Shown here: one piece after another, positions 11,565 to 33,276 of the stretch
Layout: every line of letters begins with the position of its first letter
Position numbering within the stretch: the stretch's first letter is position 1
Position numbers and translations under genes: made by a program
Origin: a virus
Virus record (IMG/VR): IMGVR_UViG_3300009154_002438
Span: 1-37,150 of that record
Direction: 5' to 3' (one strand)
Length of the DNA: 37,150 bases
Notes under the pieces: model-generated
What the model saw: the letters and a program-made list of their open reading frames with translations, nothing else
Database searches by the model: none
Told to the model about the DNA's origin: nothing

Positions 11565-11569
11565 AATGA

Positions 11570-11577: not shown

Positions 11578-11584
11578 ATAAATA
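11577..11584 (+). promoter_or_regulatory. T4-type late promoter TATAAATA
   Basis: An exact TATAAATA octamer 20 nt before the ATG of the basic peptide gene, with AGGAG between them at 11592-11596. Its position suits a late transcript starting near 11590. Confidence 0.65.
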
Positions 11585-11604
11585 TTGGACTAGGAGATTT
11601 AACT

Positions 11605-18627: not shown

Positions 18628-18656
18628 ATTATAGCACCAAATTGATGCTATGTCAA
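18628..18656 (-). promoter_or_regulatory. Consensus sigma70-type promoter whose -35 box holds a stop codon
   Basis: The minus strand reads TTGACA (18651-18656), 17 bp, TATAAT (18628-18633), a perfect consensus. The TGA inside the -35 box is the stop codon of the upstream E1-beta-like gene. It drives the 399-residue gene. Confidence 0.88.
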
Positions 18657-19192
18657 GCAATATATAACTGTGGGTATTCTGCCACAATGTGGATTCCGCC
18701 CGTTTTGTAAGCATTTTTATAAGTGTCCAAAATGCTATCTGCAGATTTTAGATCGTAAAATCGAGTATTTGGACACATGCTGGTAAACTCTGCAATGAAA
18801 TTGGCTTTGTGCTGTGGACCCGGATCCAACGGCTCGTCTGCACCTTTGGCCACTCGAATGATTATATTGGCTTGTTTGCCAGTCATTTCCTCGTACTTGT
18901 CCACATGATTGATCAATTGATTAGCCGCGCAGATCAAAAAGTTCCAGCGAGGATAAAAGCTGATCACAGTTTGGCCCATCATACTCATGCCCAAACTCAT
19001 GCCCATTTGTGTTTCTTCCATTACTGGAACTTCGATCATCTTGTCTTTGGCTACGTTTACTAAAGTAGTACTCATCGGGTTACCCGGATACACAATCTGC
19101 TGTCCAATGAATACAGTATCGATTTGCTCACCCAAATAGGTCATAGCTTCAGTCAAAGCGTCTTTGTAAATTGATGTTTGTGGTTTGGTCAT
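18653..19192 (-). CDS. Thiamine-diphosphate enzyme, E1-beta/transketolase pyrimidine-domain subunit
   Basis: A 179-residue protein resembling the N-terminal (Pyr) domain of pyruvate-dehydrogenase-type E1-beta subunits. The family order is visible: YKDALTEAMTYLG at the start; PVMEETQMGMSLGMSMMG at 56-73, where E59 fits the conserved Glu that activates thiamine diphosphate; then NQLINHVDKYEEMTG and RVAKGADEPLDPGPQH. E1-beta proteins are about 325 residues; this one lacks the C-terminal transketolase domain. ATG 19192 is chosen because it overlaps the upstream stop as ATGA; a longer frame to 19270 exists but lies inside that gene. Its likely partner, E1-alpha-like, is at 23872-24501 in the same operon. 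Together they may transfer a two-carbon unit or make a branched sugar; the substrate is unknown. Confidence 0.82.
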   Translation of the reverse strand: MTKPQTSIYKDALTEAMTYLGEQIDTVFIGQQIVYPGNPMSTTLVNVAKDKMIEVPVMEETQMGMSLGMSMMGQTVISFYPRWNFLICAANQLINHVDKYEEMTGKQANIIIRVAKGADEPLDPGPQHKANFIAEFTSMCPNTRFYDLKSADSILDTYKNAYKTGGIHIVAEYPQLYIA

Positions 19193-19635
19193 GGCACTGA
19201 TGGCTTGTTGTCTTGTGAAACATCTTTGTTCCAGCTGATTTCCCAACCCTGGAAGTCTGCAGCCAAACAATCAACTTTGTAGTCTTTGCGTCCGCCCACG
19301 ACTTCTTGTATGATATTTTTGCTAGTGTTGCGGATTCCGTTCAAGCCGTGTGTCAATTCCAAATTGTTGCCGTCTTTGATTCCTCTGCGGTAGTTTGATT
19401 CGTTGTGCCAAATATGCAAGTTCATTTGAGCCAACACCACAATGGCTCGAATAGTTTCTGCATCCACTTTGGCATCCGGATGCTGGTCCATAATCAACTG
19501 TATGTCATGCACGATATCGGCGATCTCTTCACCGTACTCTTTTTTGTAATCTGTAATGAATACTTCTTTAAGCTGTACGATGCTCAATCTATCGATCAGC
19601 TCGCTAAATGTCTGTAGGTATCTGCGTTCGGTCAT
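19189..19635 (-). CDS. Conserved helical protein, DUF4254-like
   Basis: A 148-residue, mostly helical protein. FSELIDRLSIVQLKE near 10-24 and LAQMNLHIWHNESNYRRG near 68-85, followed by LNGIRNTSKN, recall the DUF4254 proteins found beside lipopolysaccharide and glycan genes. That resemblance is from memory and tentative. No catalytic motif is clear. Its start overlaps the SDR gene upstream and its stop overlaps the E1-beta-like gene downstream (both ATGA), so it is translated with the sugar genes. Confidence 0.7.
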   Translation of the reverse strand: MTERRYLQTFSELIDRLSIVQLKEVFITDYKKEYGEEIADIVHDIQLIMDQHPDAKVDAETIRAIVVLAQMNLHIWHNESNYRRGIKDGNNLELTHGLNGIRNTSKNIIQEVVGGRKDYKVDCLAADFQGWEISWNKDVSQDNKPSVP

Positions 19636-20570
19636 AGGTTTGTAAAGTTCCGGTTGTTGTGGACTATTGTCATCTGATATGCTGTAATTAGTTGTTCAAT
19701 GCCGTAGTCTAAACTAAAAGTGGGATTCCATCCTAATGCTTCCAATTTGGCATTGCTCACTATGTAATTGCGCTGATCAAAGTCTTTGGCAAACTCGTCC
19801 TGCTTGATTGCCAGTTTAGGCACATACTTTTTAATGCACTCTGCAAGTTCCAGCTTGCTTAGGTTAGCAGTAGACAATCCTACATTATAAGCCTGCCCTC
19901 GACACTGGTCGTAGTTTTCAATTATAAACTGAAACGTTTGGGCAATGTCCTGTACATGAATGTAATTGCGTTTAAAGTGCGCTTCAAACAATACCAAGTA
20001 TCCATCAGTAACTGCTTTATAAACAAAGTCATTTACCAGCAAGTCTTGACGCATACGTGGACTGACACCAAACACTGTGGCCAGTCTTAGTGCAACACCG
20101 TTGCCATGATACAGCACAGCATCTTCTGCATCGCATTTGGTTTCGGCATATAAACTCAAAGGTTTGAATGGACTATCTTCGGTAATGATTTCGTCACTTG
20201 ATCCGTATTGGCTGTTGGTGTTGGGAATGATCAGCTTTTGATCACTGGCCAGTACTTCCACTATGTATCTTATATGCTTGTAGTTTACATCTCTGGCCAG
20301 TTCGGGATTGGCTCGGCAAGCAGGCATTCCCACGATTGCGGCTAGGGGAATAATGATATCATGTTCTTTAACCAATGCCTGTAGTTGTCTAGTATCTCTA
20401 ACATCACCTAAGACAAATTTAAAGCCCTGTCTGTTAAATAGATGCAACAAGGATAACTGTTTGTACAACAAGTTATCAAATACAGTTACACTGTAGCCCT
20501 GTGTTAGTAAATGTTCAGCTAGTGTAGAGCCTAGGTAGCCAGCACCGCCTGTGATTAGTACTCGCTTCAT
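19632..20570 (-). CDS. NAD(P)-dependent sugar epimerase/dehydratase (extended SDR) 1
   Basis: A 312-residue extended short-chain dehydrogenase. The Rossmann motif G8-x-x-G11-x-x-G14 (ITGGAGYLG), GDVRD at 55-59 and catalytic Y141-x3-K145 (LYAETKC) are intact, with the serine near 120 (TNSQYG). Family members convert nucleotide sugars (epimerases, dehydratases, reductases). The exact substrate (UDP-, GDP-, CDP- or dTDP-sugar) is not readable from sequence. It is the only one of the three SDRs in this operon with a textbook YxxxK, so it is the most likely active oxidoreductase. ATGA overlaps link it to genes on both sides. Confidence 0.92.
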   Translation of the reverse strand: MKRVLITGGAGYLGSTLAEHLLTQGYSVTVFDNLLYKQLSLLHLFNRQGFKFVLGDVRDTRQLQALVKEHDIIIPLAAIVGMPACRANPELARDVNYKHIRYIVEVLASDQKLIIPNTNSQYGSSDEIITEDSPFKPLSLYAETKCDAEDAVLYHGNGVALRLATVFGVSPRMRQDLLVNDFVYKAVTDGYLVLFEAHFKRNYIHVQDIAQTFQFIIENYDQCRGQAYNVGLSTANLSKLELAECIKKYVPKLAIKQDEFAKDFDQRNYIVSNAKLEALGWNPTFSLDYGIEQLITAYQMTIVHNNRNFTNL

Positions 20571-21559
20571 GGCTTGCTATTTGGATCAAATTGTTCTTTG
20601 TGCGCACGATACCATTCGATAGTATCCTTTAGTGCTTGTTTAATCTCACGCTTTGGTTTCCAGCCTAGCGCATTAATCTTTTCACTAGATACTAGACGAA
20701 CTGGAATCATAGGTGCTCGATTGTTAACGTACTCAATTGGGTTAGTATTGCCGTCGGCTTCTTTCATCCACTCAAGTAATTGGTTAACGCTGTAGCCTTG
20801 ACCGTAGCACACATTGTAGATATCATAGGTGTCCACATGCTCTGCAACATACACAATGCCTCCGGCCATGTCGTCTGCGTGTAGCACATCACGTATTTCT
20901 GTACCATCACCCCAAACAGGAATTGGATTCAGCCTGTCCGCCACTTTGCGAATGTTTGCAGGTGTAACATGGCATTTCTCAAAGTCATACTTGTCATTGG
21001 GCCCAAATGCGTTGCTTGGACGAATAATGACGCACTGCATTGGATCATGTATTTGATTACTAAAGAAGTCGCACATCATCTCGCCAAAGCGTTTCATAGC
21101 ACCCACTGCTTTGTACACAGGTACTAGCGGCAAGTTCATAAAGTTGGCGTCTTCTACAGCATACACTGAACCAAGGTCGCCATTGACGTTTGCTGTGCTG
21201 ATAAAGATAAATTTACGCACCTTGTTCTTCCAGCTTTGTTCCATTATGTTGTTATTCATCTCAACATTGGGAGTAACATGTAATAACGGATTGAACTTAG
21301 TATCCAGTGCATTACTAGTGTTAGCCGCGCAGTGTATTACCACATCAATGTCTTGCGACACAAATTTAGCAAAGTCTGCATCACGCAGATCACCCTTAAC
21401 TAGTTCGATAGTTTCCGATCCGTTAAAGTCATTCCGTAAGCCTCTCTGTAGTGTGCTAGCACGTAGATTAGTGAACCCTTGTTGATACAGCACTCGAAGC
21501 ACATTGGAGCCAATGAATCCGCTTGCCCCTGTTACCAAAATCTTATCTGTAGTTTTCAT
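20567..21559 (-). CDS. Extended SDR sugar-nucleotide enzyme 2 (altered active site)
   Basis: A 330-residue extended SDR with a clear NAD(P) motif (VTGASGFIG at 9-17), GDLRD at 56-60 and C-terminal substrate-binding lines typical of epimerases and GDP-fucose-synthase-like enzymes (WGDGTEIRDVLHADDMA). The catalytic region reads STANVNGD and VPVYKAVGAMKRFGEMM. The Lys expected four residues after Y149 is Gly; Lys residues stand at +1 and +8. Either the active site is shifted or the enzyme has lost oxidoreductase activity. It overlaps both neighbouring SDR genes by 4 nt. Confidence 0.88.
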   Translation of the reverse strand: MKTTDKILVTGASGFIGSNVLRVLYQQGFTNLRASTLQRGLRNDFNGSETIELVKGDLRDADFAKFVSQDIDVVIHCAANTSNALDTKFNPLLHVTPNVEMNNNIMEQSWKNKVRKFIFISTANVNGDLGSVYAVEDANFMNLPLVPVYKAVGAMKRFGEMMCDFFSNQIHDPMQCVIIRPSNAFGPNDKYDFEKCHVTPANIRKVADRLNPIPVWGDGTEIRDVLHADDMAGGIVYVAEHVDTYDIYNVCYGQGYSVNQLLEWMKEADGNTNPIEYVNNRAPMIPVRLVSSEKINALGWKPKREIKQALKDTIEWYRAHKEQFDPNSKP

Positions 21560-22539
21560 TGGCCTAACCTTTGTTTGTATGCTAGGATGGTCTGCTTGAT
21601 ACCATCACGCAAGGTTGTTTGCGGAAGTATACCGTATTTCTTTTGACGATCTGGACTTAGACAACGAACAGGATCTCCATTCATTTTTGTTTCGTCCCAG
21701 ACAATGTTCTTAGTTTCACCTGATATTTCTTTATAGCAGTCAACTATAGTCTCAATGGTTTCTTTGATAGTGATGGCTTCTGCACAACCAAAGTTGATAA
21801 TATCTTTTACTTCTTTCTTGACCACATCAACACTAGCCTGTGCAACATCATCGCCGAACACAAAGTCACGCCTTGCACTGCCGTTACCCCAACACACTAT
21901 ATCTTTGCCCTCAACGTTGTACAACTTCCAGACGTTGCTACTGATCACAGTAGCGTCTTGTGCAAAGTTGTCATTGAGTCCGTAGATGTTGCTGGGACGT
22001 ATCACAGTCCAGTTGTCCCATCCATACTGTACTTGTAGGCTTTCTAATGTAGCTTCACCCATACGTTTGGTCCACCCCGGATACCAATCATTCTTACTGG
22101 GCACAGTGACCCATACATCTTCTTCACGCATGATCTCTGTAGGTTGGTAAACACCTACACTTGAAAGATAAACAAACCAACCGACCTTGGCATCAAATGC
22201 GGCCTTGATCATGTTGGTATTGAACATCAACATAGGAAACAAGTAGTCTGCAGGTTGTTTGCTACTACGTGCTGGCGATCCTTTTATTCCTGCAATATGC
22301 AGTACAATATCAATCGGTTGTTCTTCAAACAGTGACTCGCAGTTGTCCAAATATGTTAGGTCTTTCATTACCAGTATTAGATTAGAGTATTGTTCTCTTA
22401 AGGAAATCAATCCTTCTCCTATATTAATGTCCACTGCATAAACTGCATGAGCACCTTCTTCTAAGCACTTGCGAACCGCAGGTAATCCCACTAGTCCGTT
22501 GGCACCTGTAACGACTATATTTTTATTTTTAAATTCCAT
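21556..22539 (-). CDS. Extended SDR sugar-nucleotide enzyme 3, GDP-fucose-synthase-like
   Basis: A 327-residue extended SDR. VTGANGLVG at 10-18 binds NAD(P). WGNGSARRDFVFGDDVA near 218-234 and the overall length resemble GDP-L-fucose synthase and GDP-sugar epimerase/reductases. The catalytic stretch is YLSSVGVYQ and NDWYPGWTKRMGE: Y153 and K158 are five apart instead of four, with Pro at the usual Tyr position. A relative of this motif (PGW-x-K) may exist in other families, so this may be a subfamily trait. It is translationally coupled to SDR 2 and to the glycosyltransferase-like gene upstream (11-nt overlap). Confidence 0.88.
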   Translation of the reverse strand: MEFKNKNIVVTGANGLVGLPAVRKCLEEGAHAVYAVDINIGEGLISLREQYSNLILVMKDLTYLDNCESLFEEQPIDIVLHIAGIKGSPARSSKQPADYLFPMLMFNTNMIKAAFDAKVGWFVYLSSVGVYQPTEIMREEDVWVTVPSKNDWYPGWTKRMGEATLESLQVQYGWDNWTVIRPSNIYGLNDNFAQDATVISSNVWKLYNVEGKDIVCWGNGSARRDFVFGDDVAQASVDVVKKEVKDIINFGCAEAITIKETIETIVDCYKEISGETKNIVWDETKMNGDPVRCLSPDRQKKYGILPQTTLRDGIKQTILAYKQRLGQ

Positions 22540-23887
22540 GTTGAAGGTCTCTTATTAAATTTTGGTAAGGTTGTGCATTGATAAATGTAGTCAGATGGTT
22601 TCGATTATGGATCAATATATCTTTTACACTAAAATACAATTCGTGAATTTGTTCAAGTGTTAAATCATTTAATTTTTTTAATTCGTGTTCTATCAGCGCC
22701 ATGCGCAATTCGGGATCTTGTTCAAGATCGTATTCCTCGTTAATATAAGGATGAAATGTTCTAAACCCTAATTCATGCAGGTCTTTCAAAGAATTATAAT
22801 TACCTACATATAAAAACGGTTGAAAGTTTGCTATAGGCCTATATGTCTTTTCCGACATAAAGGGACTATCACCATCGTGAAATCTTGTTTCAGATACAAT
22901 ATGAATATAAGTGTTGAGATAAAGTTCTTTTTTGTTGTTGTGTGTTGAAAAGTTAGTTTTTTCAGACTGACTCAAAAGATGCGTGTCAACTTCCCAAGGC
23001 AGTATCTTTACAATTTGTCTAGCCATTTCTGACAGGTCTACATCTTTGTAATAGGTACTCCACGCCCTGGAACTGTCCAGCACCTGTCGCTCAGTTATCT
23101 GTTCAAGGAAACTGAACACATTATGATCTAGCAGATTGTATTTCAATGCTAGGTATGCCAGTGATATTCTGTGTGCGCGATTACTTAATTGTCTATTGAA
23201 GCACATGAATTTGTGAGGGCGTATTTTATCAGGATTCAACTCATGCTGTTTGACAAAATCGTTCATGTAGCCAAGTCGACCTGGTCGAGGCCTTGATGTT
23301 ATTCTTTCAGCATCTTCTCTAGGAAATAACAAAGGTCCACCAACTACTCTTATACTACAACCAGACACAGCGAATTCGTTTCCCGCAACTACTATTACAT
23401 TCTTGCCGTTGATACCTATTGATTGCAATAATGAATCAAACTTCAGTAGGTCTTCTTCGTTGGAGACAGGATCATGAATGTAATTTATAACCAGTTTTAC
23501 TTTGCCAGATCGCAGATGGTTTAACACTTTGGGGGAGATGGTATCGCTGATATTGTAAGTACAACTATTTCCTCCTATGTTAAATGAGTGATCTTGAAAT
23601 AGTGAATTTAGTGAAGTGCGTATTTCAATCGGGTAGATGTAGATATCAGCATCGTCCACAATTTGATCCGGATCAACCATAGCATGATTTTTAAAATATT
23701 TAAAAAAGTTGTTATGCCACCTGAATGGGAACATGTCACTATTCATTAGACTAGTAGCTGTACTTTCTACAGAATCGATACTTGGTATAGAACTTTTGAT
23801 ATGATTGGCCAGTATGGGATGAAGTCCGTTGGACAGCGGTACAGATTGATACCAATTGTCATAAACTATTTTTAGAATACTATCCAT
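22529..23887 (-). CDS. Putative glycosyltransferase-like protein A
   Basis: A 452-residue soluble protein, a paralogue of the gene at 25052-26461. Shared blocks are FMCFNRQLSNRAHRISLAYL near 228-247; IHIVSETRFH...SEKTYRPIANFQPFLYVG near 325-354; and LGFRTFHPYINEEYD near 365-379. The pattern Et...(S/T)EK...PI...PF...GF-x-TF-x-x-(Y/F)I-(N/D)E-x-YD recalls the donor-binding half of some glycosyltransferases. I cannot give a CAZy family, and the transferase role is inferred from this and from the sugar genes around it. It overlaps the E1-alpha-like gene by 16 nt and SDR 3 by 11 nt. Confidence 0.72.
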   Translation of the reverse strand: MDSILKIVYDNWYQSVPLSNGLHPILANHIKSSIPSIDSVESTATSLMNSDMFPFRWHNNFFKYFKNHAMVDPDQIVDDADIYIYPIEIRTSLNSLFQDHSFNIGGNSCTYNISDTISPKVLNHLRSGKVKLVINYIHDPVSNEEDLLKFDSLLQSIGINGKNVIVVAGNEFAVSGCSIRVVGGPLLFPREDAERITSRPRPGRLGYMNDFVKQHELNPDKIRPHKFMCFNRQLSNRAHRISLAYLALKYNLLDHNVFSFLEQITERQVLDSSRAWSTYYKDVDLSEMARQIVKILPWEVDTHLLSQSEKTNFSTHNNKKELYLNTYIHIVSETRFHDGDSPFMSEKTYRPIANFQPFLYVGNYNSLKDLHELGFRTFHPYINEEYDLEQDPELRMALIEHELKKLNDLTLEQIHELYFSVKDILIHNRNHLTTFINAQPYQNLIRDLQHGI

Positions 23888-24501
23888 TTGCCTGTGCCGT
23901 AATGCGGATACTTAGATTTGTAATGGTAGTGTACTACATCATGGGGTACGCTACGTTTACCATTCCATGTGGTATCTGTTGGAGTATATGTTGATACTGC
24001 ATTGTCTTCCACTACAAAGTATAATGGTAAATCAAAGTTTCTAGCATACTTGTGTATCTCGTAGAATATACCGCTTTCAAAACTCATGTCACCAATAAAG
24101 CACCATACTTTATCTGTAGAACCTGCACGTTTGATTTGCTGAGCAACACCCAGTGCAACGGGCAGTGTTCCGCCAACTATGGCACTGCTGTAAAATTTTT
24201 CATCAACATTGCAAATACTAATTGACTTTCCTTTGAGAATTTCTGCAGTTATCCATTGAGGATCTAGGCCTTTAAGCAGTGCATGATAATGACTGCGCCA
24301 GGTACTGAACACCCAATCAGTTGTATTAACACGTTTAAATATTTCGATCAAACTGTGTTCATTGCCGTTTGACAAGTGTATAGGTCCTCGAACTCGAGCA
24401 CCTTCCCATAGAGCTATGATCGAATCTTCAAACTTGATCAAACTATCTGGTGTATGATCGATATCTCGCACGACGGGATACTGGTCTAAATTAGTTATCA
24501 T
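23872..24501 (-). CDS. Thiamine-diphosphate enzyme, E1-alpha-like subunit
   Basis: A 209-residue protein like the alpha subunit of pyruvate/branched-chain dehydrogenase E1. Visible family lines are RVRGPIHLSNGNEHSLIEIF at 36-55, VFSTWRSHYHALLKG at 64-78, SAIVGGTLPVALGVA at 106-120, and the thiamine diphosphate/Mg motif from G137-D138 to N167 (CFIGDMSFESG...VVEDNAVST). The usual GDG is GDM here. The family is about 320-360 residues; this protein ends soon after the cofactor motif. The beta-like partner lies about 4.7 kb downstream at 18653. It sits between the RmlC-like cupin (4-nt overlap) and a glycosyltransferase-like gene, which points to sugar chemistry and not central metabolism. Confidence 0.85.
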   Translation of the reverse strand: MITNLDQYPVVRDIDHTPDSLIKFEDSIIALWEGARVRGPIHLSNGNEHSLIEIFKRVNTTDWVFSTWRSHYHALLKGLDPQWITAEILKGKSISICNVDEKFYSSAIVGGTLPVALGVAQQIKRAGSTDKVWCFIGDMSFESGIFYEIHKYARNFDLPLYFVVEDNAVSTYTPTDTTWNGKRSVPHDVVHYHYKSKYPHYGTGKWIVF

Positions 24502-25043
24502 TTGTCACGCCCTTGTATTATAGGATCTTTAGTAGGCCATTCTATATTGTAAGCCGGGTCATTCCATTTTATTACACCCTGATTATTTTCATTAACATAG
24601 TCGCCTTGATAAAATAGGCTGTAGTGAAAAATGCAATCTGTCAGTGCATAGTGCCCGTTAGCAAATCCCGGGGGTACCAGTACTTGGTCTCTGGTCTTTT
24701 CACTTATGATGTAAGATTCCCATTTGCCAAATGTATCGCTGTCTTGTCTTACATCAAGCACTACTAGATAGATATCGCCGACTAGAGCTTGAACCAGCTT
24801 CCAAGTTTTGTCATCATAGTGTAGTCCACGCAGTACACCTTGATATGATTTTGAAAATCTAGTATGAACTTGCACATCGTTTGGTAATATTTGGTTAACA
24901 GGGTGCGCAGTAGAATGATAGGTAGTAAATATCTCTCCCCTGTACTCTCTATAAACAGCAGGCGAGTACACAGGGACTTCTTTACCAAAGGTATTTAGAT
25001 ATGCTGTGTCTACTGTTTGCCAGTTACTGTCTTTGTAATTCAT
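24498..25043 (-). CDS. RmlC-like dTDP-4-dehydrorhamnose 3,5-epimerase family cupin
   Basis: A 181-residue cupin of the RmlC family, which epimerises C3 and/or C5 of 4-keto-6-deoxy nucleotide sugars. GVLRGLHYDDKTWKLVQAL at 69-87 includes the catalytic His H75. DIYLVVLDVRQDS, FGKWESYIISEK, VPPGFANGHYAL and IKWNDPAYNIEWP follow, with D162 at the usual Asp. The common GFAHGF reads GFANGHY, so the second His is shifted by two positions. The ATG has no Shine-Dalgarno and lies 5 nt after an AATAAATA box. With the SDRs it supports a 4-keto sugar pathway. Confidence 0.9.
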   Translation of the reverse strand: MNYKDSNWQTVDTAYLNTFGKEVPVYSPAVYREYRGEIFTTYHSTAHPVNQILPNDVQVHTRFSKSYQGVLRGLHYDDKTWKLVQALVGDIYLVVLDVRQDSDTFGKWESYIISEKTRDQVLVPPGFANGHYALTDCIFHYSLFYQGDYVNENNQGVIKWNDPAYNIEWPTKDPIIQGRDK

Positions 25044-25048
25044 GGAAA

Positions 25049-25056
25049 TATTTATT
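25049..25056 (-). promoter_or_regulatory. Late-type box AATAAATA, 5 nt before the RmlC-like ATG
   Basis: An exact NATAAATA match on the minus strand that includes the TAA stop of the upstream gene and ends 5 nt before an ATG lacking a Shine-Dalgarno. It could restart the distal half of the sugar operon late in infection. A chance match with the stop codon is possible. Confidence 0.4.
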
Positions 25057-26461
25057 CGTTGGTTCGTTGGTGCAGATATTTTATTAATTCAATACTGCTA
25101 GGATCGTTCTTGTGTAGTGTCAACAACAGATTATGATTGTGTTCTAATATAGACTCCATCTGCCAATACCAATCATGCAGTTGGTCTTGAGTCATAGCAC
25201 ATAGTCTGGCAATTTCTTTATAGATCATATGTACACGACGACCTTCGTCAGATTCAATATCGTAGCTTTCGTCTATAAACGGACTAAAGGTTTTGAATCC
25301 CAAACTTCTTAACAAAGCTAATGCGCCTGGATATGCTACAAATAAAAACGGTTGGAAATTTGCAATTGGCTTAAACACTTTTTCAGTAAGTGACTTGTGC
25401 TCTCCGTGTACAAAAGTTTCTGTGCAGATATAGAAATAACTGTCAGCATGTGGCTTGGCATCTTTGTCAGTCCATGCGCTTACTAGCTCATGACGATTGT
25501 CTCTTTCACTTTGTAGGACATGCGGCGTTGAATTGCATAGCTCTTTTACTGTGTCAGTGTTTATGTCAAACTGATAAAGATTCCTATAATAATCTAGCAT
25601 ACGATCATTAACTTGTAGTTTAGTCAAGCAAGACCAATCTCCCTGACTTAATAATCCATCTGTGGCCATCTTATACAGCAGAGCCAGTCTATGATTTCGA
25701 GAGTTTCTAATTTTAAATAAGAAATGATTTGGTCTTTTAAAATATCTGCTGTTTCTAAATTGCTCAACGCTCAGACGGAAGCTAGGGTTCTCAAAGTAAA
25801 ACATAGATGCTTCGCTCATTACATAGCACCAGTTGTGTACTTCTAGTCTACGTTCGTCGGGTCTAAACCATGATTCGTATACTTCTCGACCATTGAACGT
25901 GTTAAACGCTAGGATAACTTGTTCCTTAGGTATTCCGCTGTATCTAAGAACTTCATGTAAATTTATATAAGTTTCTTTTTCTATAAAGTTCTCTTGTCCA
26001 TAATCTATGAATATGATAGCTCTTCTTGATTGTGCATCTTGTAAGGCTTCTTCACTCATGTGTTTCCAAAAGTATTCGCCATTTAGTTTGTTGCCTGGCC
26101 TTAAATTAACTCCTACAAATTCATGCAGATGCGGCCCTAGTTTTATAGGGTAGATATATCGATTGACCTGATGCTTGCCAAGGTACAAAGAGTTTTCAAT
26201 TATTTGTACCTTATTAGAGTATACTCCCCTATCAAGATGCGAGCCGTTGTGTCTAATACTGTTTGGCCAATCACCGAATTTTTTATTAAAGACAGATCGT
26301 GTTACATCACTGGCACCTGGATCTGTAAAACAATTTTCTCTGTCTTTGTTTGAATATTGACTGTTAAAGTAATTTAAGATAGCGTATTCTGGCATCAATG
26401 CATTTGGCAAGATGTAGTTAGGAAATACGTAGTCGTAGAAAAAATGCAATTGATATTTCAT
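25052..26461 (-). CDS. Putative glycosyltransferase-like protein B
   Basis: A 469-residue paralogue of the protein at 22529-23887. It shares FLFKIRNSRNHRLALLYKM near 247-265, YFYICTETFVHGEHKSLTEK, VFKPIANFQPFLFVA near 360-375 and LGFKTFSPFIDESYD near 387-401. Its N-terminal half differs from the paralogue's and is rich in aromatics, which suggests a different acceptor. Transferase activity is inferred, not shown. It overlaps the radical SAM gene by 4 nt and is followed by an 8-nt gap before the RmlC-like gene, the widest gap between two genes in the operon. Confidence 0.72.
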   Translation of the reverse strand: MKYQLHFFYDYVFPNYILPNALMPEYAILNYFNSQYSNKDRENCFTDPGASDVTRSVFNKKFGDWPNSIRHNGSHLDRGVYSNKVQIIENSLYLGKHQVNRYIYPIKLGPHLHEFVGVNLRPGNKLNGEYFWKHMSEEALQDAQSRRAIIFIDYGQENFIEKETYINLHEVLRYSGIPKEQVILAFNTFNGREVYESWFRPDERRLEVHNWCYVMSEASMFYFENPSFRLSVEQFRNSRYFKRPNHFLFKIRNSRNHRLALLYKMATDGLLSQGDWSCLTKLQVNDRMLDYYRNLYQFDINTDTVKELCNSTPHVLQSERDNRHELVSAWTDKDAKPHADSYFYICTETFVHGEHKSLTEKVFKPIANFQPFLFVAYPGALALLRSLGFKTFSPFIDESYDIESDEGRRVHMIYKEIARLCAMTQDQLHDWYWQMESILEHNHNLLLTLHKNDPSSIELIKYLHQRTNE

Positions 26462-27819
26462 AGCTGTTGACAGTAATTGTAAAATTTTACCATCTCGGGA
26501 AATGTAGCCGAGAAGTTTGTGCCACGTCTGCGATCATGCTCGTCAACAAACGCTACAAAGTCTTTTTGATTCTTTACAGTATCTGGTTCATCGTGTGATT
26601 GAAATATTTCGTATATTCGTTTCATACGTTCGACTTCAAGACGATCAAATCCTTGGTATGTTTCTGTTGCAGTGCCTTCTGCATAAGACTGCACAAAGTC
26701 CACATGCTCTTTGATTGTTGTGGCAAAGTCCTTTGTTAGAATAAAGATTGACTGATGTGGAGGCCACCGCAGATACGGTATGTCTAATAGTACAGCAGTT
26801 TGCTTATATTCTGGTTTGTAATATTGTGTTTTGAGTCTCAATACATCTTGCAAGAATTTGGTATAGCTGGGAACGCTTAGGGCATTGTAGGTGCTCATGA
26901 TTGTAAACCCTACACTTGGTACTTCTTTTAGCACACGTTCAATATTATCGATCCATTGAGCATAGTCCATACCATTGCGTATATACTCTGCCTGAGCGCC
27001 ATATGCCTCTGCACTAGTAAAGATTTTGAATCTTTTTACTTTGCCTTCCAACAGTTTAATCTTTTCAATAAACTTATCTAGTATGTCACTCGGTGGACAC
27101 ATGTTGGCATTAATACTAAAGTCCAAGTTTGGATTGGGATTAGCAATTATGTAATCTAGAATCTTAAATGTATTTTTGTTCAGTAAAGGTTCACCGCCAG
27201 TGATACGAAAATGCTCTAGCTCACGATAAGCAGTAGGCCACCATTCCCAAAATGCATCAACATAGGGATTGTCGTCCTTGTGTGGTATGGGCATCTGATC
27301 TGTTTGTTTCAGCCACTCCAGGTTGTTGAACTTGCCCGATGTGGGATATGGTCCAAACTTTTCAATTTCTTCCATCCAACGTGAGCTGACATTGGGCGCA
27401 CAATAACTGCATTTAAAATTACACACATTACCAAAGCTAACTTCTACGTAGCTGGGTACAACATCATGGTCCCAGGGTTTACTGGCTATGTCTTGAATAT
27501 GAGGTGCCGCCCACTTGTCGGCACTTTTAAAAATTCTATCACTTAGTGAGTTACTGTTGTCTTCAACACGCCAGCAGTAGTCACACTCTGCCGGACGTTC
27601 GCCACTCAGCATCATCTTACGTTGTAGTTTTTTAAACTTGGTATTGTGTAACGCTGATGGATTGGCTGACAGTTCTTCTAACGGTATCTTGTGAGGTGCC
27701 GGATGATGGCAACTATGGTTATGCCCAGTTTGGAGATGAAGCGTTACCTGCTTCCACTTAGCGGCACAAAATGATGGACTGACACTATTAAGTTCATCTC
27801 TAAACTTGTTTATGTCCAT
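26458..27819 (-). CDS. Radical SAM protein, twitch/SPASM-like type
   Basis: A 453-residue radical SAM enzyme. C133-x3-C137-x2-C140 (NVCNFKCSYC) binds the [4Fe-4S] cluster that cleaves S-adenosylmethionine, and FRITGGEPLL at 204-213 is the SAM-binding GGEP line. Extra N-terminal cysteines (C37 in HSCHHP, C79-x2-C82 in ECDYC) suggest a second, auxiliary cluster, as in twitch/SPASM proteins. The reaction cannot be told; candidates in this setting are sugar dehydration or epimerisation, or peptide/protein modification. It is coupled to the glycosyltransferase-like gene downstream (4-nt overlap) and to the unknown 278-residue gene upstream (10-nt overlap). An Fe-S carrier is encoded elsewhere in the window. 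Confidence 0.9.
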   Translation of the reverse strand: MDINKFRDELNSVSPSFCAAKWKQVTLHLQTGHNHSCHHPAPHKIPLEELSANPSALHNTKFKKLQRKMMLSGERPAECDYCWRVEDNSNSLSDRIFKSADKWAAPHIQDIASKPWDHDVVPSYVEVSFGNVCNFKCSYCAPNVSSRWMEEIEKFGPYPTSGKFNNLEWLKQTDQMPIPHKDDNPYVDAFWEWWPTAYRELEHFRITGGEPLLNKNTFKILDYIIANPNPNLDFSINANMCPPSDILDKFIEKIKLLEGKVKRFKIFTSAEAYGAQAEYIRNGMDYAQWIDNIERVLKEVPSVGFTIMSTYNALSVPSYTKFLQDVLRLKTQYYKPEYKQTAVLLDIPYLRWPPHQSIFILTKDFATTIKEHVDFVQSYAEGTATETYQGFDRLEVERMKRIYEIFQSHDEPDTVKNQKDFVAFVDEHDRRRGTNFSATFPEMVKFYNYCQQL

Positions 27820-28646
27820 AGACTCTGACGGATTTTGATAAGGCGAATCATCATAGCTTCGTCTTCTGCTTCATAAGCCTTTTCAATCTTTTGAAGTAGC
27901 TTGTGAGCCTTGTCGCTGGCTTTTTTAAGTGTAGGATCTTTCTCACCGCTGAAACTCAGTCGGCCACCGTTGGCCAAACGACTGGCTTCGCATGCCGCAG
28001 TCCAGCCACTTGCTTCGTATGGGTCAGGACGATTGCGATATGTAACAGTCCACCAAGTGTAAAGCTCGATGATTTCTTTAGCGGATTTGGCTTGATAGGT
28101 GGGCTCGCCGAATCCTTTGTCCCCAGGAGTAGCACCCATGTCTTCACCAACGACAAGCTCGCTAGCCCATTTGAGATATTCCATACCTGCTTCGGCATTG
28201 CGCCATGTACGCAAACGTAGCCAGCCACTGCGCCACCAAGGCACATCAAATTTGGTTTTGGCTTCATCACTCCACATGCAGTGATGCCATGCTTGTTCTA
28301 TTTCAACAAAGTCCACAAGCTCATTGAACATACAAGGAAGAAAGCGATTGCCAACATCACTCCAGTTACCCGGTTGTATGTCTCGAGGATGTGCGGTAAG
28401 AGCATGGCTGTAACTAACCCAGCGATTGTTAATATAATAGCGTATGTCATTTAGTCGATCCGGAATATAATAAACAAATTTTTGAAGGTGATCTAATCCT
28501 TCTTCGGCAATCCACCAACGAACAGGATGTGCTGACTTGGCTTTTTCAGTCCACTCATCCCAGCCTTCACTGGTTTGGGCTCCTGGTTTTGGTGTGCCAC
28601 GTAACCAGTCTGCAAATTTCGAACATGTCCAATAGTGTGATCTCAT
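27810..28646 (-). CDS. Conserved protein of unknown function, Trp-rich
   Basis: A 278-residue soluble protein with very high Trp and Tyr content (for example HYWTCSKFADWLRGTPKPG at the start and VPWWRSGWLRLRTWRNAEAG near 135-154). The C-terminal 70 residues are helical and charged. I recall similar proteins in large aquatic phages but no known function. It overlaps the radical SAM gene by 10 nt and the small membrane protein gene by 4 nt, so it belongs to the ligase-led operon. Confidence 0.75.
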   Translation of the reverse strand: MRSHYWTCSKFADWLRGTPKPGAQTSEGWDEWTEKAKSAHPVRWWIAEEGLDHLQKFVYYIPDRLNDIRYYINNRWVSYSHALTAHPRDIQPGNWSDVGNRFLPCMFNELVDFVEIEQAWHHCMWSDEAKTKFDVPWWRSGWLRLRTWRNAEAGMEYLKWASELVVGEDMGATPGDKGFGEPTYQAKSAKEIIELYTWWTVTYRNRPDPYEASGWTAACEASRLANGGRLSFSGEKDPTLKKASDKAHKLLQKIEKAYEAEDEAMMIRLIKIRQSLWT

Positions 28647-28900
28647 ATAATTTCCTTGTGTAATGCTGGTGTTGATAGTGTGTCATTTTCATTACATGCT
28701 ACAGGTTTACCACTTACACCTAAAAAAGTAGTACCCCAGGTCTTACCTGCATGTTCAAACTCTACATACACCTGTCCATAAGCACAGAATCTGCGTGTAT
28801 GAACATCTTCCTCAATACTTAGCAGGTTGCGGAATGGCCACAAGGCCATAATGAGTATCGTTAATATAACAAACAGTACAGTGTTCTTAAATCTTTTCAC
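28643..28900 (-). CDS. Small single-span membrane or exported protein
   Basis: An 85-residue protein. MKRFK plus hydrophobic residues 8-22 form a signal anchor or signal peptide without a lipobox. The rest would face the periplasm and contains two cysteines (near 39 and 69) that could form a disulphide. No family recognised. It overlaps the DNA ligase gene by 14 nt and the next gene by 4 nt. Confidence 0.65.
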   Translation of the reverse strand: MKRFKNTVLFVILTILIMALWPFRNLLSIEEDVHTRRFCAYGQVYVEFEHAGKTWGTTFLGVSGKPVACNENDTLSTPALHKEII

Positions 28901-30212
28901 CCGCTTCGAATCCTCTAAATTTTAAGAATCTAGGAAATCTCAACGAATAAGTACCGTCTTGATTTTGCGTTACAGCGTCTGCCCTTACTTCAACAACAGT
29001 TCCGACAACATGATCGCGGCCACTCCAATAACTATCGCGGTCGCTGTCGCTGAAACCACTGCCCACGTTAACTTTAATACTTTTTCCATCATCTTCTCCT
29101 TCGCAAACTAATGCACCTAATTTACCTACGTTACGACCTGTACCTTCTTCTGTGGCAACCACAGTAAGACTAACTTCAATGAATGGCTTGAGCTTCAACC
29201 ATGCAACACTGCGTTTACACTCATATCCAGCGGCAGGATCCTTAAGCATGATGCCTTCGTATCCGCCTGCAATCGCTTTTGCATTGATCTCTTTGTAGCG
29301 AACTTGTCCTGCTTCAGTGTCCAAATCAACAAGCTCATTGGCCACATAAGTCACATTGGGCATCATGTCTTGATTTTGTTCAACCCAAAATTTGACCATG
29401 CTACTTCGAGTAGTTTGATCCTTGTTGTAAATGCCTTTTTCAAAATCTTCCAATGGCACCACATCAAACAGGTTAAGCACAGCATCACCCGCTTCTACAT
29501 TGTCCTTGCGATGTACTTGCTTCATCAAGTCTTGGAAACTGCTGGACATAATTTCTCCATCCAGTACAATGTCCATACTCTTGCTGGCGCCTTTGAGTTG
29601 AATCACGTTTGAAATCTGTTGTGCTATGTGAGGAAAGTTAGCAAGTTCTTTACCATTGCGACTGAACATATCCACCCGACCGTCACTACGTACAATAGTA
29701 ATAACTCTAACTCCGTCGAGTTTAACTTCAATAAGTTTTTTGCCCGATACCTTCGACTCATGATTAGCACTATCATGAGCAAGCTGACAACCGAATACAG
29801 GAATAGCATAGTCAGCATACTTCTTCTCCACTACTTTGTTAATTGTTTTTTCGCTTACACCACAGCGCAAGTCTTTGATTAAAATCCTACGATACCAACC
29901 ATTCCATTCTGCTTTGGTTGCTGACTTCATCATGGCGGCAATCATATCACGTGCTGTATTACCAGTAACTTGACGTGTAACAAAACCAGTAAGAGCGAGA
30001 GTAAAACTGTCCCAAGGTAAGCCAGCACCATCCGCATCTGTTTTCTCAGGTATCTGTTTGAGTCCAAAAGTGATCATTGGATCTAGCGCAAGACGACAAC
30101 CTTCAAAGAATTCTTTATTGCCTTCTTCAGCTATGGCTAGGATTATGGCTTCTTTGTTTAAACGGCTTGGATGGGTTTCTAGGGCCCAAATGTGACTGGC
30201 ACAAACGCTCAT
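28887..30212 (-). CDS. ATP-dependent DNA ligase
   Basis: A 441-residue ATP-dependent DNA ligase that seals nicks during phage replication, recombination and repair. The nucleotidyl Lys is K164 in VKLDG (KxDG motif I). MFSRNGKEL follows, then LDGEIM (motif III), GYEGIMLKDP (motif IV) and WLKLKP (motif V), then an OB-fold ending in LRFPRFLKFRG. The N-terminal helical domain (about 1-155) resembles T4 gp30-type ligases. AGGAG precedes the ATG. It is the first gene behind the strong sigma70-type promoter at 30246-30274, ahead of the sugar operon. Confidence 0.95.
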   Translation of the reverse strand: MSVCASHIWALETHPSRLNKEAIILAIAEEGNKEFFEGCRLALDPMITFGLKQIPEKTDADGAGLPWDSFTLALTGFVTRQVTGNTARDMIAAMMKSATKAEWNGWYRRILIKDLRCGVSEKTINKVVEKKYADYAIPVFGCQLAHDSANHESKVSGKKLIEVKLDGVRVITIVRSDGRVDMFSRNGKELANFPHIAQQISNVIQLKGASKSMDIVLDGEIMSSSFQDLMKQVHRKDNVEAGDAVLNLFDVVPLEDFEKGIYNKDQTTRSSMVKFWVEQNQDMMPNVTYVANELVDLDTEAGQVRYKEINAKAIAGGYEGIMLKDPAAGYECKRSVAWLKLKPFIEVSLTVVATEEGTGRNVGKLGALVCEGEDDGKSIKVNVGSGFSDSDRDSYWSGRDHVVGTVVEVRADAVTQNQDGTYSLRFPRFLKFRGFEAGEKI

Positions 30213-31047: not shown

Positions 31048-31638
31048 TTATGGGCGTTTTGTTATGATCTCGTCAATTAATCCAAAATCTAGTGCTTCTT
31101 GCGCACTCATAAAGTTATCACGTTCCATAGCAGAGTGGAACTGCTCAAACGTCTTGCCCTTGCTGTTATGGTCTACATAAATTTGGGTCAAGTTCTTTTT
31201 CATTTTAATGATTTCGTTTACTTGGATTTCCATGTCTGTAGCTTGTCCACCTGCACCACCGCTTGGCTGGTGAATCATGTGGCGAGCGTTTGGAAGCATT
31301 TTGCGTTTGCCAGGAGCCCCAGCAGTAGCGAGCAAGGAACCCATACTGCAAGCCTGACCCATAACGACGGTACAGACGTCTGGTTTAATAAATTGCATTG
31401 TGTCATAGATAGCCATGCCGGCAGTAACCACACCCCCAGGACTATTGATGAAAAAAGTAATGTCTTCATTTCCTTGACTTTCTAAAAATAGTAGCTGTGC
31501 TACCAGCAAACTTGCCGAATGTTCATTAACATCTGTGTCCAGCATAACAATACGGTCCTTGAGCAAGCGACTGTAAATATCATAACTACGTTCTCCACGA
31601 GCTTCTTGCTCGATCACCATTGGTACTAGGTTTGGCAT
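31048..31638 (-). CDS. clpP: ClpP-type serine protease
   Basis: A 196-residue ClpP, the proteolytic core that degrades proteins fed by ClpA/ClpX. The catalytic triad is complete: S98 in [12 protein letters not shown]123 in [11 protein letters not shown] and D174 in ERDNFMS. The substrate-binding INSPGG is at 64-69. Length is normal (about 195-205). No Clp ATPase is in the window, so it probably works with host ClpX or ClpA, or trims virion proteins. AAGGA precedes the ATG. It is last in the operon that begins at 34809. Confidence 0.95.
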
Positions 31639-31640
31639 TT

Positions 31641-32168
31641 TTATCCTTTAAGATGCTTCATTACGTTTTCTGGGCTTGATACGCCGTAGGGATCTGGATC
31701 AGTGTCGCTAGCTTCGGGTTCGATGAACATGTGCTGTACTTGCCCATTATCGATGATGGCCGCATAACGGCGACTGCGTTTTCCAAAACCAATTGCACTC
31801 ATATCTATCAACATGCCCATACCTTCTGTAAACACTCCTGCTCCGTCTGGAATAGGATGTACATTTTGAATGTTCAAACTACGAGCCCACTCGTTCATAA
31901 CGAACGCATCATTAACACTGACACAATAGATATCATCAATACCTTGTGCTCTAAAGTCTTCATACTGCTCTTCAAAGCCGGGTAGTTGGTATGTTGAACA
32001 AGTTGGGGTAAATGCTCCCGGCAAGCTGAATACCACTACTCGCTTGTTGTCAAACAGCTCTGCTGTAGTCTTGAATACAAATTCTCCACCGATTGGGCAA
32101 CCACCGCCCTCGGGTGCTAGATCGCCTTGGCGAAATGCAAATGTTACATTTGGTACTAGTTGTGTCAT
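31641..32168 (-). CDS. Peroxiredoxin (Prx5-like)
   Basis: A 175-residue thioredoxin-fold peroxidase of the Prx5 type, which reduces H2O2 and alkyl peroxides. The signature PGAFTPTCS gives the peroxidatic C57. VFSLP, the [19 protein letters not shown] stretch and [11 protein letters not shown] match the family; C24 and C82 are possible resolving residues. AAGGA precedes the ATG. It lies 2 nt upstream of clpP and overlaps the MazG-like gene. It would remove the H2O2 made by the phage dismutase at 11004-11564. Confidence 0.94.
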
Positions 32169-32542
32169 AATTGTTCCTTAATAAATTGTTTTAATTCTGG
32201 CGGAGTCCAGCCAATTGGCTTTAGAACCTTGCCGTCTTCACGCTTGCGCACCTTGCCTGTTTCGTGATCGATCTTGGCAAAGTTAGTGCGCATAACTTCT
32301 TTCCATGCACCCTCGGCATCGCTACCTGTACTATGAATGGCACCGATAGTGACTACTAGAATATCTATAAGTGCATCTAACGTTTCTAACTGATTATTGT
32401 TGTTGACAGCTTCCCAAAGCTCTTTGTATTCTTCTTCAATGAGTCTGAGATACATTGCAAACTGATCTCGATTAAACTCACCACCTGCGACTTGATCACA
32501 GGCTTTCATAAACTTTTCTTGATCTCTAAATGGATTGGTCAT
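32165..32542 (-). CDS. MazG-like nucleotide pyrophosphohydrolase
   Basis: A 125-residue all-alpha NTP pyrophosphohydrolase. E36-E37-E38-x2-E41 (EEEYKELWEA) and D56-x3-D60 (LDALIDILVV) are the Mg-binding residues of the MazG/HisE superfamily. The C-terminal FAKIDHETGKVRKREDGKVLKP stretch is common in phage members. It may hydrolyse (d)NTPs or ppGpp-like alarmones; which one is not known. It overlaps both neighbours by 4 nt. Confidence 0.88.
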   Translation of the reverse strand: MTNPFRDQEKFMKACDQVAGGEFNRDQFAMYLRLIEEEYKELWEAVNNNNQLETLDALIDILVVTIGAIHSTGSDAEGAWKEVMRTNFAKIDHETGKVRKREDGKVLKPIGWTPPELKQFIKEQL

Positions 32543-32826
32543 TCTGCTGGCTCGTATGTTTGTTCAAAGATGTCTGGCTTGCAAGCATAGAACTCGCCCT
32601 GCACACCTTTGATAATCCAATCCCCTTCTGTGGCAATGTGTTTCACAGTCAAATGAACACCATCTTCCAATGTTCCAATTTCTGCTTCTGCTAGTGCGCT
32701 AGGATGACGATCCTTGCTCACATTACCCAATGCTGTGCCACAAAAAGATTTGACAGCAATCATTCCCTGTTCATCATAGATAAATCGAACTGCTTCGATC
32801 ACTACGGGTTTTTTTCTAAATTTCAT
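32539..32826 (-). CDS. Small conserved phage protein (KKPVVIEAVRF...GDWIIKGVQGEFY family)
   Basis: A 95-residue protein of a family very common in phages and prophages. It begins MKFRKKPVVIEAVRF, has GTLEDGVHL in the middle, and ends GDWIIKGVQGEFYACKPDIF. The function is not established. It overlaps the genes on both sides by 4 nt. Confidence 0.85.
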   Translation of the reverse strand: MKFRKKPVVIEAVRFIYDEQGMIAVKSFCGTALGNVSKDRHPSALAEAEIGTLEDGVHLTVKHIATEGDWIIKGVQGEFYACKPDIFEQTYEPAE

Positions 32827-33275: not shown

Positions 33276-33276
33276 A

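What the first reader, a model, noticed from the sequence alone, without database searches (positions are those of the whole stretch)
18653..30212. Phage operon for making and transferring an unusual sugar
Thirteen coupled minus-strand genes (overlaps of 4-16 nt, one 8-nt gap) combine three extended SDRs, an RmlC-like 3,5-epimerase, E1-alpha-like and E1-beta-like thiamine-diphosphate subunits, a twitch-type radical SAM protein, two paralogous glycosyltransferase-like proteins and a DUF4254-like protein, headed by DNA ligase. Lipopolysaccharide gene clusters are known in some cyanophages such as P-SSM2, but I do not know this set with a split E1 enzyme and a radical SAM protein. The logic fits a 4-keto sugar that is epimerised, reduced, perhaps carbon-extended, and then transferred to host LPS, virion protein or DNA.
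Basis: partly seen in the sequence, partly recalled or inferred. Interest (0 to 1): 0.85.

Follow-up and report, generated by a model that had tools for sequence, protein, structure and literature searches.

The report
Phage pathway remodelling a GDP-heptose-like sugar
Many aquatic phages carry a conserved gene set that appears to convert an activated seven-carbon sugar supplied by the host into an unusual, perhaps carbon-branched, sugar and attach it to something, most likely the host's surface coat.

Summary
The operon is real: 13 coupled minus-strand genes. The recurrent set lies between the radical SAM gene and E1-beta (27819-18653); ligase and two small genes are local. Of 80 viral loci found with E1-alpha, 65 carry one of two alternative 4-keto-sugar enzymes, none both, and 50 of the 51 loci of at least 18 kb have one. 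SDR1's best solved relative is 6VO6/6VO8 (340 bits; next 78), by recall Cj1427, the GDP-D-glycero-D-manno-heptose C4-dehydrogenase. The 'RmlC' is closest to GDP-4-keto-heptose epimerases (125-132 bits against 86 for rhamnose enzymes). Cellular relatives often place the E1 pair among GDP-heptose synthesis genes; 20 phage records lack GmhA and E2 and nearly lack sugar-activation genes. Best reading: the phage takes host GDP-heptose, oxidises C4, epimerises it, and a minimal thiamine-diphosphate alpha/beta enzyme joins a two-carbon unit to the ketone (inferred from AviB1/B2); GT-B transferases then use the sugar. E1 reaction, sugar and acceptor are unproven. New variant of a known kind.

The parts
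26458..27819 (-). N-twitch radical SAM protein (453 aa); role unknown (sugar dehydrogenation or epimerisation is a guess)
   Evidence: NF033640 346 bits, cut-off 170; CxxxCxxC seen in the sequence; at least 90 bits in 40 of 80 viral loci
25052..26461 (-). GTb: glycosyltransferase-like protein (469 aa), related to GTa
   Evidence: 32.7% identity to GTa over 220 aa; shared invariant E-K in alignment A2; no Pfam hit
24498..25043 (-). Cupin C3 or C3/C5 epimerase of the GDP-4-keto-heptose type (181 aa)
   Evidence: Best PDB matches 7ani, 8dcl, 7ang, 7an4, 7m14, 8db5, 8dak, 8dco at 124.6-132.3 bits, next (dTDP-rhamnose type) 85.8; H67, K74, N121, H123, Y134, D173 equivalents kept, I56 is S, Y132 is F
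23872..24501 (-). E1-alpha-like thiamine-diphosphate-binding subunit, minimal (209 aa)
   Evidence: PF00676 6e-14; profile best in PDB: PDH E1-alpha 72 bits; GD...N motif invariant in 66 of 66 viral rows
22529..23887 (-). GTa: GT-B-fold glycosyltransferase-like protein (452 aa)
   Evidence: AlphaFold2 model pLDDT 92.7; Foldseek E 6.8e-6 to trehalose-6-P synthases, but TM-scores only 0.3-0.4; VIA-align Z 11.3, rmsd 5.4 over 277 residues to alpha1,3-fucosyltransferase 2nzw, tied with exostosin and T4 BGT
21556..22539 (-). SDR3: GDP-fucose-synthase-like extended SDR (327 aa) without the usual YxxxK
   Evidence: NF047922 134 bits, cut-off 500; PDB best GDP-L-fucose synthase 76 bits; GWxK-like motif
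20567..21559 (-). SDR2: extended SDR (330 aa) related to GDP-fucose synthase / MlghC, without the usual YxxxK
   Evidence: 8rdg 94 bits, 7anh 88 bits; Y at K-7 instead of K-4
19632..20570 (-). SDR1: GDP-heptose C4-dehydrogenase of the Cj1427 type (312 aa)
   Evidence: 6vo6/6vo8 340 bits over residues 2-309, next 78 bits; YxxxK in 55 of 55 aligned viral and cellular rows; that 6vo6 is Cj1427 is recalled
19189..19635 (-).
   Evidence: 46 of 80 viral loci; four-helix model, best of five pLDDT 77.5; no PDB match at E <= 0.001; no DUF4254 hit
18653..19192 (-). E1-beta-like subunit (179 aa from the ATG at 19192), pyrimidine-binding half of the thiamine-diphosphate enzyme; too short to hold the E1-beta/transketolase C-terminal domain
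   Evidence: PF02779 8.8e-7; aligned with human PDH E1-beta at 25 bits; Glu59 and His128 kept in 47 of 47 viral and 55 of 55 cellular rows

Best explanation
A phage-borne cassette that remodels a host-supplied GDP-D-glycero-D-manno-heptose (or a near relative). SDR1 oxidises C4 to a ketone; the cupin epimerises next to that ketone; the E1-alpha/E1-beta pair, one minimal thiamine-diphosphate enzyme, decarboxylates a 2-oxo acid (probably pyruvate) and joins the two-carbon unit to the C4 ketone, giving a C4-branched sugar; SDR2 and/or SDR3 tailor it; GTa and GTb (GT-B-like) transfer it, most likely onto host surface polysaccharide to change the receptor and exclude other phages. Shown by sequence: gene set, families, conservation, closest relatives, catalytic residues, absence of E2 and near absence of sugar-activation genes in the 20 records examined. 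Inferred: GDP-heptose as substrate, the E1 reaction, the order of steps, the acceptor.
For: (1) SDR1 matches 6vo6/6vo8 at 340 bits over the full length, next 78. (2) The cupin is nearer to eight heptose-epimerase chains (124.6-132.3 bits) than to any rhamnose enzyme (85.8 or less); PMC7949155 assigns 7ANI, 7ANG, 7ANJ and 7AN4 to the DdahB/MlghB structures (passages). (3) In viral loci the Cj1427-type enzyme (49 of 80) and a GMD-type 4,6-dehydratase (16 of 80) never co-occur and 50 of 51 long loci have one, mirroring the two ways C. jejuni makes a 4-keto heptose (PMC7949155 and PMC10680097, passages). (4) E1-alpha of the phages is sister to cellular genes, mostly of SAR11, Gammaproteobacteria and Chloroflexi (100/98, midpoint root); 13 of those 19 cellular loci carry at least one HddA/GmhA/HddC/GmhB-like gene and 16 of 19 a 4-keto enzyme. 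(5) GmhA-type SIS domain in 0 of 20 phage records, nucleotidyltransferase in 1 of 20 (a 39-position match), GHMP kinase in 2 of 20 (far from the cassette): the phage seems to work on an already activated sugar. (6) E2 acyltransferase in 0 of 20, so the acyl unit needs another acceptor. (7) E1-like pairs AviB1/B2 and Pau11/12 are proposed to add a C2 branch at C4 of keto sugars (PMC4753412, first quarter of the text read). (8) At least one SAR11 locus (L105) holds a split transketolase and an acetolactate-synthase-like protein besides the E1 pair, and those families recur in 8-9 and 6 of 78 cellular loci, so the E1 pair is not simply their transketolase.
Against: No activity of the E1 pair is known and the AviB1/B2 reaction itself is called 'proposed' in the paper read. 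The cupin has Ser and Phe where DdahB/MlghB have I56 and Y132. SDR2 and SDR3 lack the usual YxxxK, so the final reduction is unassigned. HddA, HddC and GmhA assignments are best matches below NCBIfam cut-offs. In cells the two 4-keto enzymes are not exclusive (both in 2 of 78 loci). Of the 54 cellular loci with nearer E1-alpha (at least 165 bits) 19 have neither 4-keto enzyme, several on contigs over 20 kb; of 24 with more distant E1-alpha only 1 has one, so the E1 family may do other chemistry too. Host and its GDP-heptose supply are unknown. Identity of 6vo6 with Cj1427 is recalled; a paper search for it found nothing relevant and the structure paper is not held.
Confidence: 0.5

Rival explanations
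1. The E1 pair is a minimal transketolase-like enzyme that makes a heptulose (or other ketose) phosphate as precursor for the heptose pathway, not a branching enzyme.
For: Cellular relatives often sit among GmhA/HddA/HddC-like genes; fused relatives in S-SM2 and P-TIM68 are annotated transketolase, in P-TIM68 next to HldE-like kinase and nucleotidyltransferase genes.
Against: The phages keep the E1 pair but not GmhA (0 of 20) and hardly any activation gene; E1-alpha is nearer to PDH E1-alpha (72 bits) than to a split transketolase (22.5 bits); some cellular loci hold a separate split transketolase.
Confidence: 0.15
2. Same pathway logic, but the substrate is a hexose (GDP-mannose derived), giving a C4-branched 6-deoxyhexose of the yersiniose kind.
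For: 16 of 80 viral loci use a GMD-type dehydratase; the cupin has Ser at the I56 position, as RmlC does by the paper's account; GDP-mannose is common in bacteria (general knowledge).
Against: SDR1's 340-bit match to the heptose dehydrogenase; cupin nearest to heptose epimerases, with the H123 equivalent kept; heptose genes in cellular relatives.
Confidence: 0.2
3. The sugar is attached to phage DNA or to a virion protein, not to the host surface.
For: GTa's structural matches include T4 beta-glucosyltransferase and alpha-glucosyltransferase at Z about 10-11, tied with others; virion-protein-like genes lie close to the cassette.
Against: Thymidylate-synthase-family genes, which would include known pyrimidine hydroxymethylases (general knowledge), are in 4 of 20 records only and not in the 265-kb record with this locus; cellular relatives include polysaccharide-type genes, with an ABC exporter family in 7 of 78 loci. 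No direct test of the acceptor.
Confidence: 0.15
4. Passenger DNA: host surface-sugar genes carried without function.
For: Raised for cyanophage LPS genes as possible 'stuffer DNA' (PMC3037559, passages).
Against: One phage clade (66 viral rows and 2 phage-like contigs of 127 rows, support 100/95) with invariant catalytic residues and replacement of the 4-keto enzyme by an alternative.
Confidence: 0.04

Closest known systems
Campylobacter jejuni capsular GDP-heptose modification pathways (Cj1427/MlghB/MlghC and DdahA/B/C)
   Same: Cj1427-type C4-dehydrogenase or GMD-type 4,6-dehydratase as alternatives, C3 or C3/C5 cupin epimerase, GDP-fucose-synthase-like SDRs (PMC7949155, PMC10680097 passages)
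   Different: In phages; adds the E1 pair, an N-twitch radical SAM and GT-B-like proteins; the 20 phage records examined lack GmhA and nearly lack activation genes; its SDR2/SDR3 lack YxxxK
AviB1/AviB2 and Pau11/Pau12 two-carbon branching of antibiotic sugars; yersiniose enzyme YerE
   Same: E1-like alpha/beta pair (Avi, Pau) acting with NDP-sugar enzymes; proposed acetyl transfer to a C4 ketone (PMC4753412)
   Different: Phage subunits are minimal (209 + 179 aa), here encoded apart, tied to heptose-type enzymes; no sequence comparison with AviB1/B2 was made
LPS gene clusters of cyanophages (S-SM2, P-TIM68) and pelagimyophages
   Same: Phage-borne nucleotide-sugar and glycosyltransferase genes; S-SM2 and P-TIM68 hold a fused relative of the E1 pair; radical SAM cassettes and LPS genes in the host-recognition region of pelagimyophages (PMC7029224 passages)
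   Different: In the 33-37 kb stretches examined, S-SM2 and P-TIM68 show no cupin match and only distant SDR matches (48 bits or less to SDR1); P-TIM68 carries its own HldE-like genes and both a Zn alcohol dehydrogenase gene beside the E1 fusion

Membership tests
C. jejuni-type GDP-heptose modification pathway | C4-dehydrogenase of the Cj1427 type | tested here: met
   340 bits to 6vo6/6vo8; that this entry is Cj1427 is recalled
C. jejuni-type GDP-heptose modification pathway | Epimerase nearer to heptose than rhamnose enzymes, catalytic H67/K74/Y134/D173 | tested here: met
   (54 of 54 viral rows)
C. jejuni-type GDP-heptose modification pathway | C7-recognition residues I56 and H123 | tested here: inconclusive
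   H123 kept in 54 of 54 viral rows, I56 is Ser in 54 of 54
C. jejuni-type GDP-heptose modification pathway | C4-reductase with the S-Y-K triad | tested here: not met
   SDR2 and SDR3 resemble GDP-fucose synthase but lack YxxxK at the usual spacing
C. jejuni-type GDP-heptose modification pathway | GDP-heptose synthesis genes GmhA, HddA, HddC in the same genome | tested here: not met
   SIS 0 of 20, NTP transferase 1 of 20 (partial), GHMP kinase 2 of 20 phage records, which may be fragments; host not testable
AviB1/B2-type C4 branching system | E1-alpha/beta pair linked to a 4-keto-sugar-forming enzyme | tested here: met
   50 of 51 long viral loci have a 4-keto enzyme and 45 of 51 an E1b
AviB1/B2-type C4 branching system | Sequence orthology to AviB1/B2 | not tested
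   Sequences were not at hand
AviB1/B2-type C4 branching system | C4-branched product | not testable with these tools
   needs enzyme assay
Pyruvate dehydrogenase E1 | Thiamine-diphosphate motif and active-site Glu/His | tested here: met
Pyruvate dehydrogenase E1 | E2 partner | tested here: not met
   PF00198 in 0 of 20 phage records; rings in 10 of 14 controls
Transketolase | Closest family by sequence | tested here: not met
   E1-alpha profile: PDH E1-alpha 72 bits, split transketolase 22.5 bits
GT-B glycosyltransferase | GT-B fold | tested here: met
   Z 11.3, rmsd 5.4 A over 277 residues to 2nzw; Foldseek TM-scores low (0.3-0.4)
GT10 fucosyltransferase | Clearly best structural match | tested here: inconclusive
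   Z 11.3 tied with exostosin 11.2 and T4 BGT 11.1
DUF4254 (PF14063) | Pfam match | tested here: not met
   no hit at E <= 0.01; the accession PF14063 is recalled

The most novel reading that the evidence does not exclude
Aquatic phages carry an assembly line for an undescribed C4-branched heptose (a nine-carbon GDP-sugar): a minimal two-subunit thiamine-diphosphate carboligase of about 388 residues, working without E2, builds a carbon branch on a host GDP-4-keto-heptose, and the phage uses the product to re-label the infected cell. The phage 'transketolases' on record would then be misnamed sugar-branching enzymes.
Probability: 0.33. Interest if true: 0.75.

Novelty: new variant of a known kind. 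Interest (0 to 1): 0.6.

Why it matters
It turns a vague 'phage LPS cluster' into a testable pathway with a named substrate class, names the likely function of phage genes now filed as transketolase or unknown, and points to a minimal thiamine-diphosphate enzyme shared by phages, SAR11 and many uncultured bacteria and archaea. If the branched sugar is real it would be a new surface sugar made to order by phages, relevant to superinfection exclusion in the plankton.

Tried and rejected
Rhamnose pathway for the RmlC-like gene: rejected, because the nearest solved relatives are heptose epimerases. SDR1 as a dTDP-glucose 4,6-dehydratase: rejected, 83 bits to TIGR01181 against a cut-off of 365, and the T-D-E motif (recalled) is absent; 0 of 15 phage records has a TIGR01181 match over its cut-off, though all 15 have weaker SDR matches.

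Ligase, p85 and p278 as members: rejected by conservation (9, 5 and 6 of 80). My first regex for 4,6-dehydratases missed the GMD motif S-S-E and undercounted (2 of 78); corrected by similarity to the L087/L094 GMD-like proteins. in turn sorted loci by my own gene calls, which had missed some E1-alpha and SDR1 frames (it gave 32 of 52 and 2 of 26); one search repeats the count by tblastn (35 of 54 and 1 of 24) and is the one used. Bit thresholds are my own; SDR2 and SDR3 counts may include near paralogues.

Searches that led nowhere: phage collection for GTa and the radical SAM (none at E <= 1e-5); PDB for the radical SAM protein (none at E <= 0.01); fold search for the small helical protein (none at E <= 0.001); papers on phages with LPS, radical SAM and transketolase (4 listed, none opened), on freshwater phage nucleotide sugars (1 listed, not opened), on viral genomes with heptose or radical SAM (11 listed, passages of PMC7029224 read), on cyanophage transketolase (21 papers, 15 listed, passages of PMC3037559 read), on branched heptoses in phages (none) and on 6VO6/6VO8 (2 listed, unrelated). 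Gp23 capsid family: over its cut-off in 11 of 20 records but not matched in the 265-kb record holding this very locus, so T4-like membership of the window's own phage is not shown.

Full report
OBSERVATION. The window is a 37,150-base virus record. With E1-beta begun at the ATG at 19192, the 13 genes join by overlaps of 4-16 nt at 11 junctions and one 8-nt gap. The longer TTG start gives 205 aa and an 82-nt overlap (coordinates); aligned relatives have a median of 180 aa (viral) and 178 aa (cellular), so the ATG is preferred. Pfam and NCBIfam confirm three extended SDRs, an RmlC-type cupin, E1_dh, Transket_pyr, a radical SAM protein of the N-twitch subfamily and an ATP-dependent DNA ligase. 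The 'DUF4254' name found no Pfam match.

CONSERVATION. A scan of viral contigs with E1-alpha gave 133 relatives, of which the best 80 were kept; 77 of the 80 are below 99% identity to the window. By my bit thresholds the 80 loci hold E1-beta in 67, the cupin in 70, SDR3 in 72, SDR2 in 65, SDR1 in 49, the small helical protein in 46, the radical SAM in 40, and GTa- or GTb-like proteins in 53 and 57; ligase in 9, p278 in 6, p399 in 5, p85 in 5. E1-alpha is present in all by construction. Of 51 loci of at least 18 kb, 37 hold E1-alpha, E1-beta, cupin, SDR2 and SDR3 together. In most of these phages, as here, the two E1 genes are apart (within 150 bases in 9 of 67 loci, median distance 5.1 kb). 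The E1-alpha tree (127 rows, midpoint root) puts all 66 viral rows and two phage-like contigs from MAG bins (L085, L086) in one group (100/95), next to (100/98) a group of 19 cellular rows and one more phage-like contig (L153), mostly SAR11, Gammaproteobacteria and Chloroflexi.

WHICH SUGAR. SDR1's only close solved relative is 6vo6/6vo8 (340 bits over residues 2-309; next 78 bits). I recall these entries as Cj1427. [quoted passage not shown] a paper search for the entry codes gave nothing relevant. The cupin's eight best solved relatives are heptose epimerases by name or by PMC7949155 (124.6-132.3 bits); the best rhamnose enzyme has 85.8. Mapped on the alignment, the catalytic H67, K74, Y134 and D173 and the residues N121 and H123 are kept in 54 of 54 viral rows; I56 is Ser and Y132 is Phe in all 54. 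H123 was proposed to bind O7 of the heptose and I56 to touch C7 (PMC7949155), so this signature is mixed.

THE 4-KETO SWITCH. In 16 of the 31 loci without SDR1 a GDP-mannose-4,6-dehydratase-type enzyme (A-S-S-E and YAISK motifs) takes its place: 49 loci with SDR1, 16 with the dehydratase, none with both, 65 of 80 with one; 14 of the 15 with neither are shorter than 18 kb. C. jejuni has the same two entries, Cj1427 for heptoses and DdahA in the Ddah (6-deoxy) pathway (PMC7949155 passages). So a 4-keto sugar is the common denominator of the cassette, and the E1 pair goes with it.

CELLULAR RELATIVES. A genome scan with the E1-alpha profile gave 120 relatives, of which 78 distinct loci were kept; 72 of 78 have an E1-beta match. 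Recurring neighbours are a GHMP kinase (28 loci), SIS isomerase (18), nucleotidyltransferase (17), HAD phosphatase (11), DegT aminotransferase (27) and B12-binding radical SAM (28). In L107 these match GmhB above its cut-off and GmhA, HddA and HddC as best hits below theirs; L087 gives GmhA and HddC, and L094 HddA, likewise below cut-off. Of 54 loci with E1-alpha of at least 165 bits (four of them phage-like contigs) 35 have a 4-keto enzyme (17 SDR1, 20 dehydratase, 2 both) and 31 at least one heptose-type gene; of 24 with weaker E1-alpha 1 and 10 (Fisher p 3e-7 for the 4-keto enzyme, but loci are not independent). In the 19 cellular loci next to the phages 16 have a 4-keto enzyme and 13 a heptose-type gene. 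P-TIM68, whose fused E1 relative is annotated transketolase, has HldE-like kinase and nucleotidyltransferase genes beside it; the protein annotated phosphoheptose isomerase there had no NCBIfam match.

WHAT THE PHAGES LACK. In 20 phage records nucleotidyltransferase was found in 1 (a 39-position match), SIS in 0, GHMP kinase in 2 (far from the cassette) and E2 acyltransferase in 0. Records may be fragments. The phage therefore seems to start from an activated host sugar, and its E1 pair has no E2 of its own to feed.

THE E1 PAIR. Both halves keep what is needed: G-D...N for thiamine diphosphate in E1-alpha, Glu59 and His128 in E1-beta, aligned with a glutamate and a histidine of human PDH E1-beta. 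They are too short for the usual C-terminal parts. By sequence they are nearer to PDH E1 than to transketolase. E1-like pairs AviB1/B2 and Pau11/12 are proposed to put a C2 branch on C4 of sugars (PMC4753412, first of four parts read). On this analogy the phage pair would make a C4-branched heptose. This is inference.

TRANSFER. GTa gives a confident model (pLDDT 92.7) of GT-B type, though Foldseek TM-scores are only 0.3-0.4; the nearest structures (alpha1,3-fucosyltransferase, exostosin, T4 BGT) are tied, so donor and acceptor stay open. Host surface is favoured by pelagimyophage parallels (PMC7029224 passages) and by the polysaccharide-type setting of cellular relatives (ABC exporter family in 7 of 78 loci); thymidylate-synthase-family genes in only 4 of 20 records speak mildly against DNA.

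LOOSE ENDS. SDR2 and SDR3 lack YxxxK at the usual spacing in the aligned viral and cellular rows alike, so they may not be ordinary reductases. The roles of the radical SAM and the small helical protein are unknown.

VERDICT. Real, conserved, not an artefact; a new variant of known kinds (phage surface-sugar clusters and GDP-heptose modification), with a possibly new sugar at its end. That no paper was found describing it rests only in an open-licence library, most of whose listed papers I did not open.

Noticed in passing
window 20567-22539: SDR2 and SDR3 families lack the canonical YxxxK of extended SDRs in the aligned rows (38 viral + 17 cellular; 54 viral + 17 cellular), with largely conserved substitutes (Y..VG.MK-like and GWxK-like).
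   Followed up: partly
L105:12023-15383: A SAR11 locus with three different thiamine-diphosphate systems near each other: the E1 pair, a split transketolase and an acetolactate-synthase-like protein.
   Followed up: partly
L129:8952-10004 and similar loci: In some Nanoarchaeota and other loci a radical SAM protein (SPASM-like C-terminus seen by eye in L129) sits directly before a distant E1-alpha.
   Followed up: no
L082:18001-19209; L083:16049-17194: S-SM2 and P-TIM68 'transketolase central region' proteins are fused relatives of the E1 pair (E1-alpha then E1-beta), next to a Zn alcohol dehydrogenase gene.
   Followed up: partly
window 1-10353: Open reading frame of 3,451 aa running off the record, no PHROG match at E <= 1e-4; beside fibre-like genes 13635-15086 and 15156-17399.
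   Followed up: no
window 10357-13531 and 31048-33975: Host-like genes: a PHROG 17776 protein resembling HesB/IscA (recalled), UvdE, QueD-like, ClpP, peroxiredoxin, MazG-like, Bax1-I.
   Followed up: no
L078:16032-16805: PhyH-type dioxygenase in the neighbourhood; its family occurs in 17 of 80 viral loci.
   Followed up: no
L084, L085, L086, L153: Genome-collection contigs with phage-type cassette genes (GT-like proteins, and N-twitch radical SAM in three of the four), probably phage DNA in bacterial bins; L085 is binned as Pelagibacterales, a weak host hint.
   Followed up: partly
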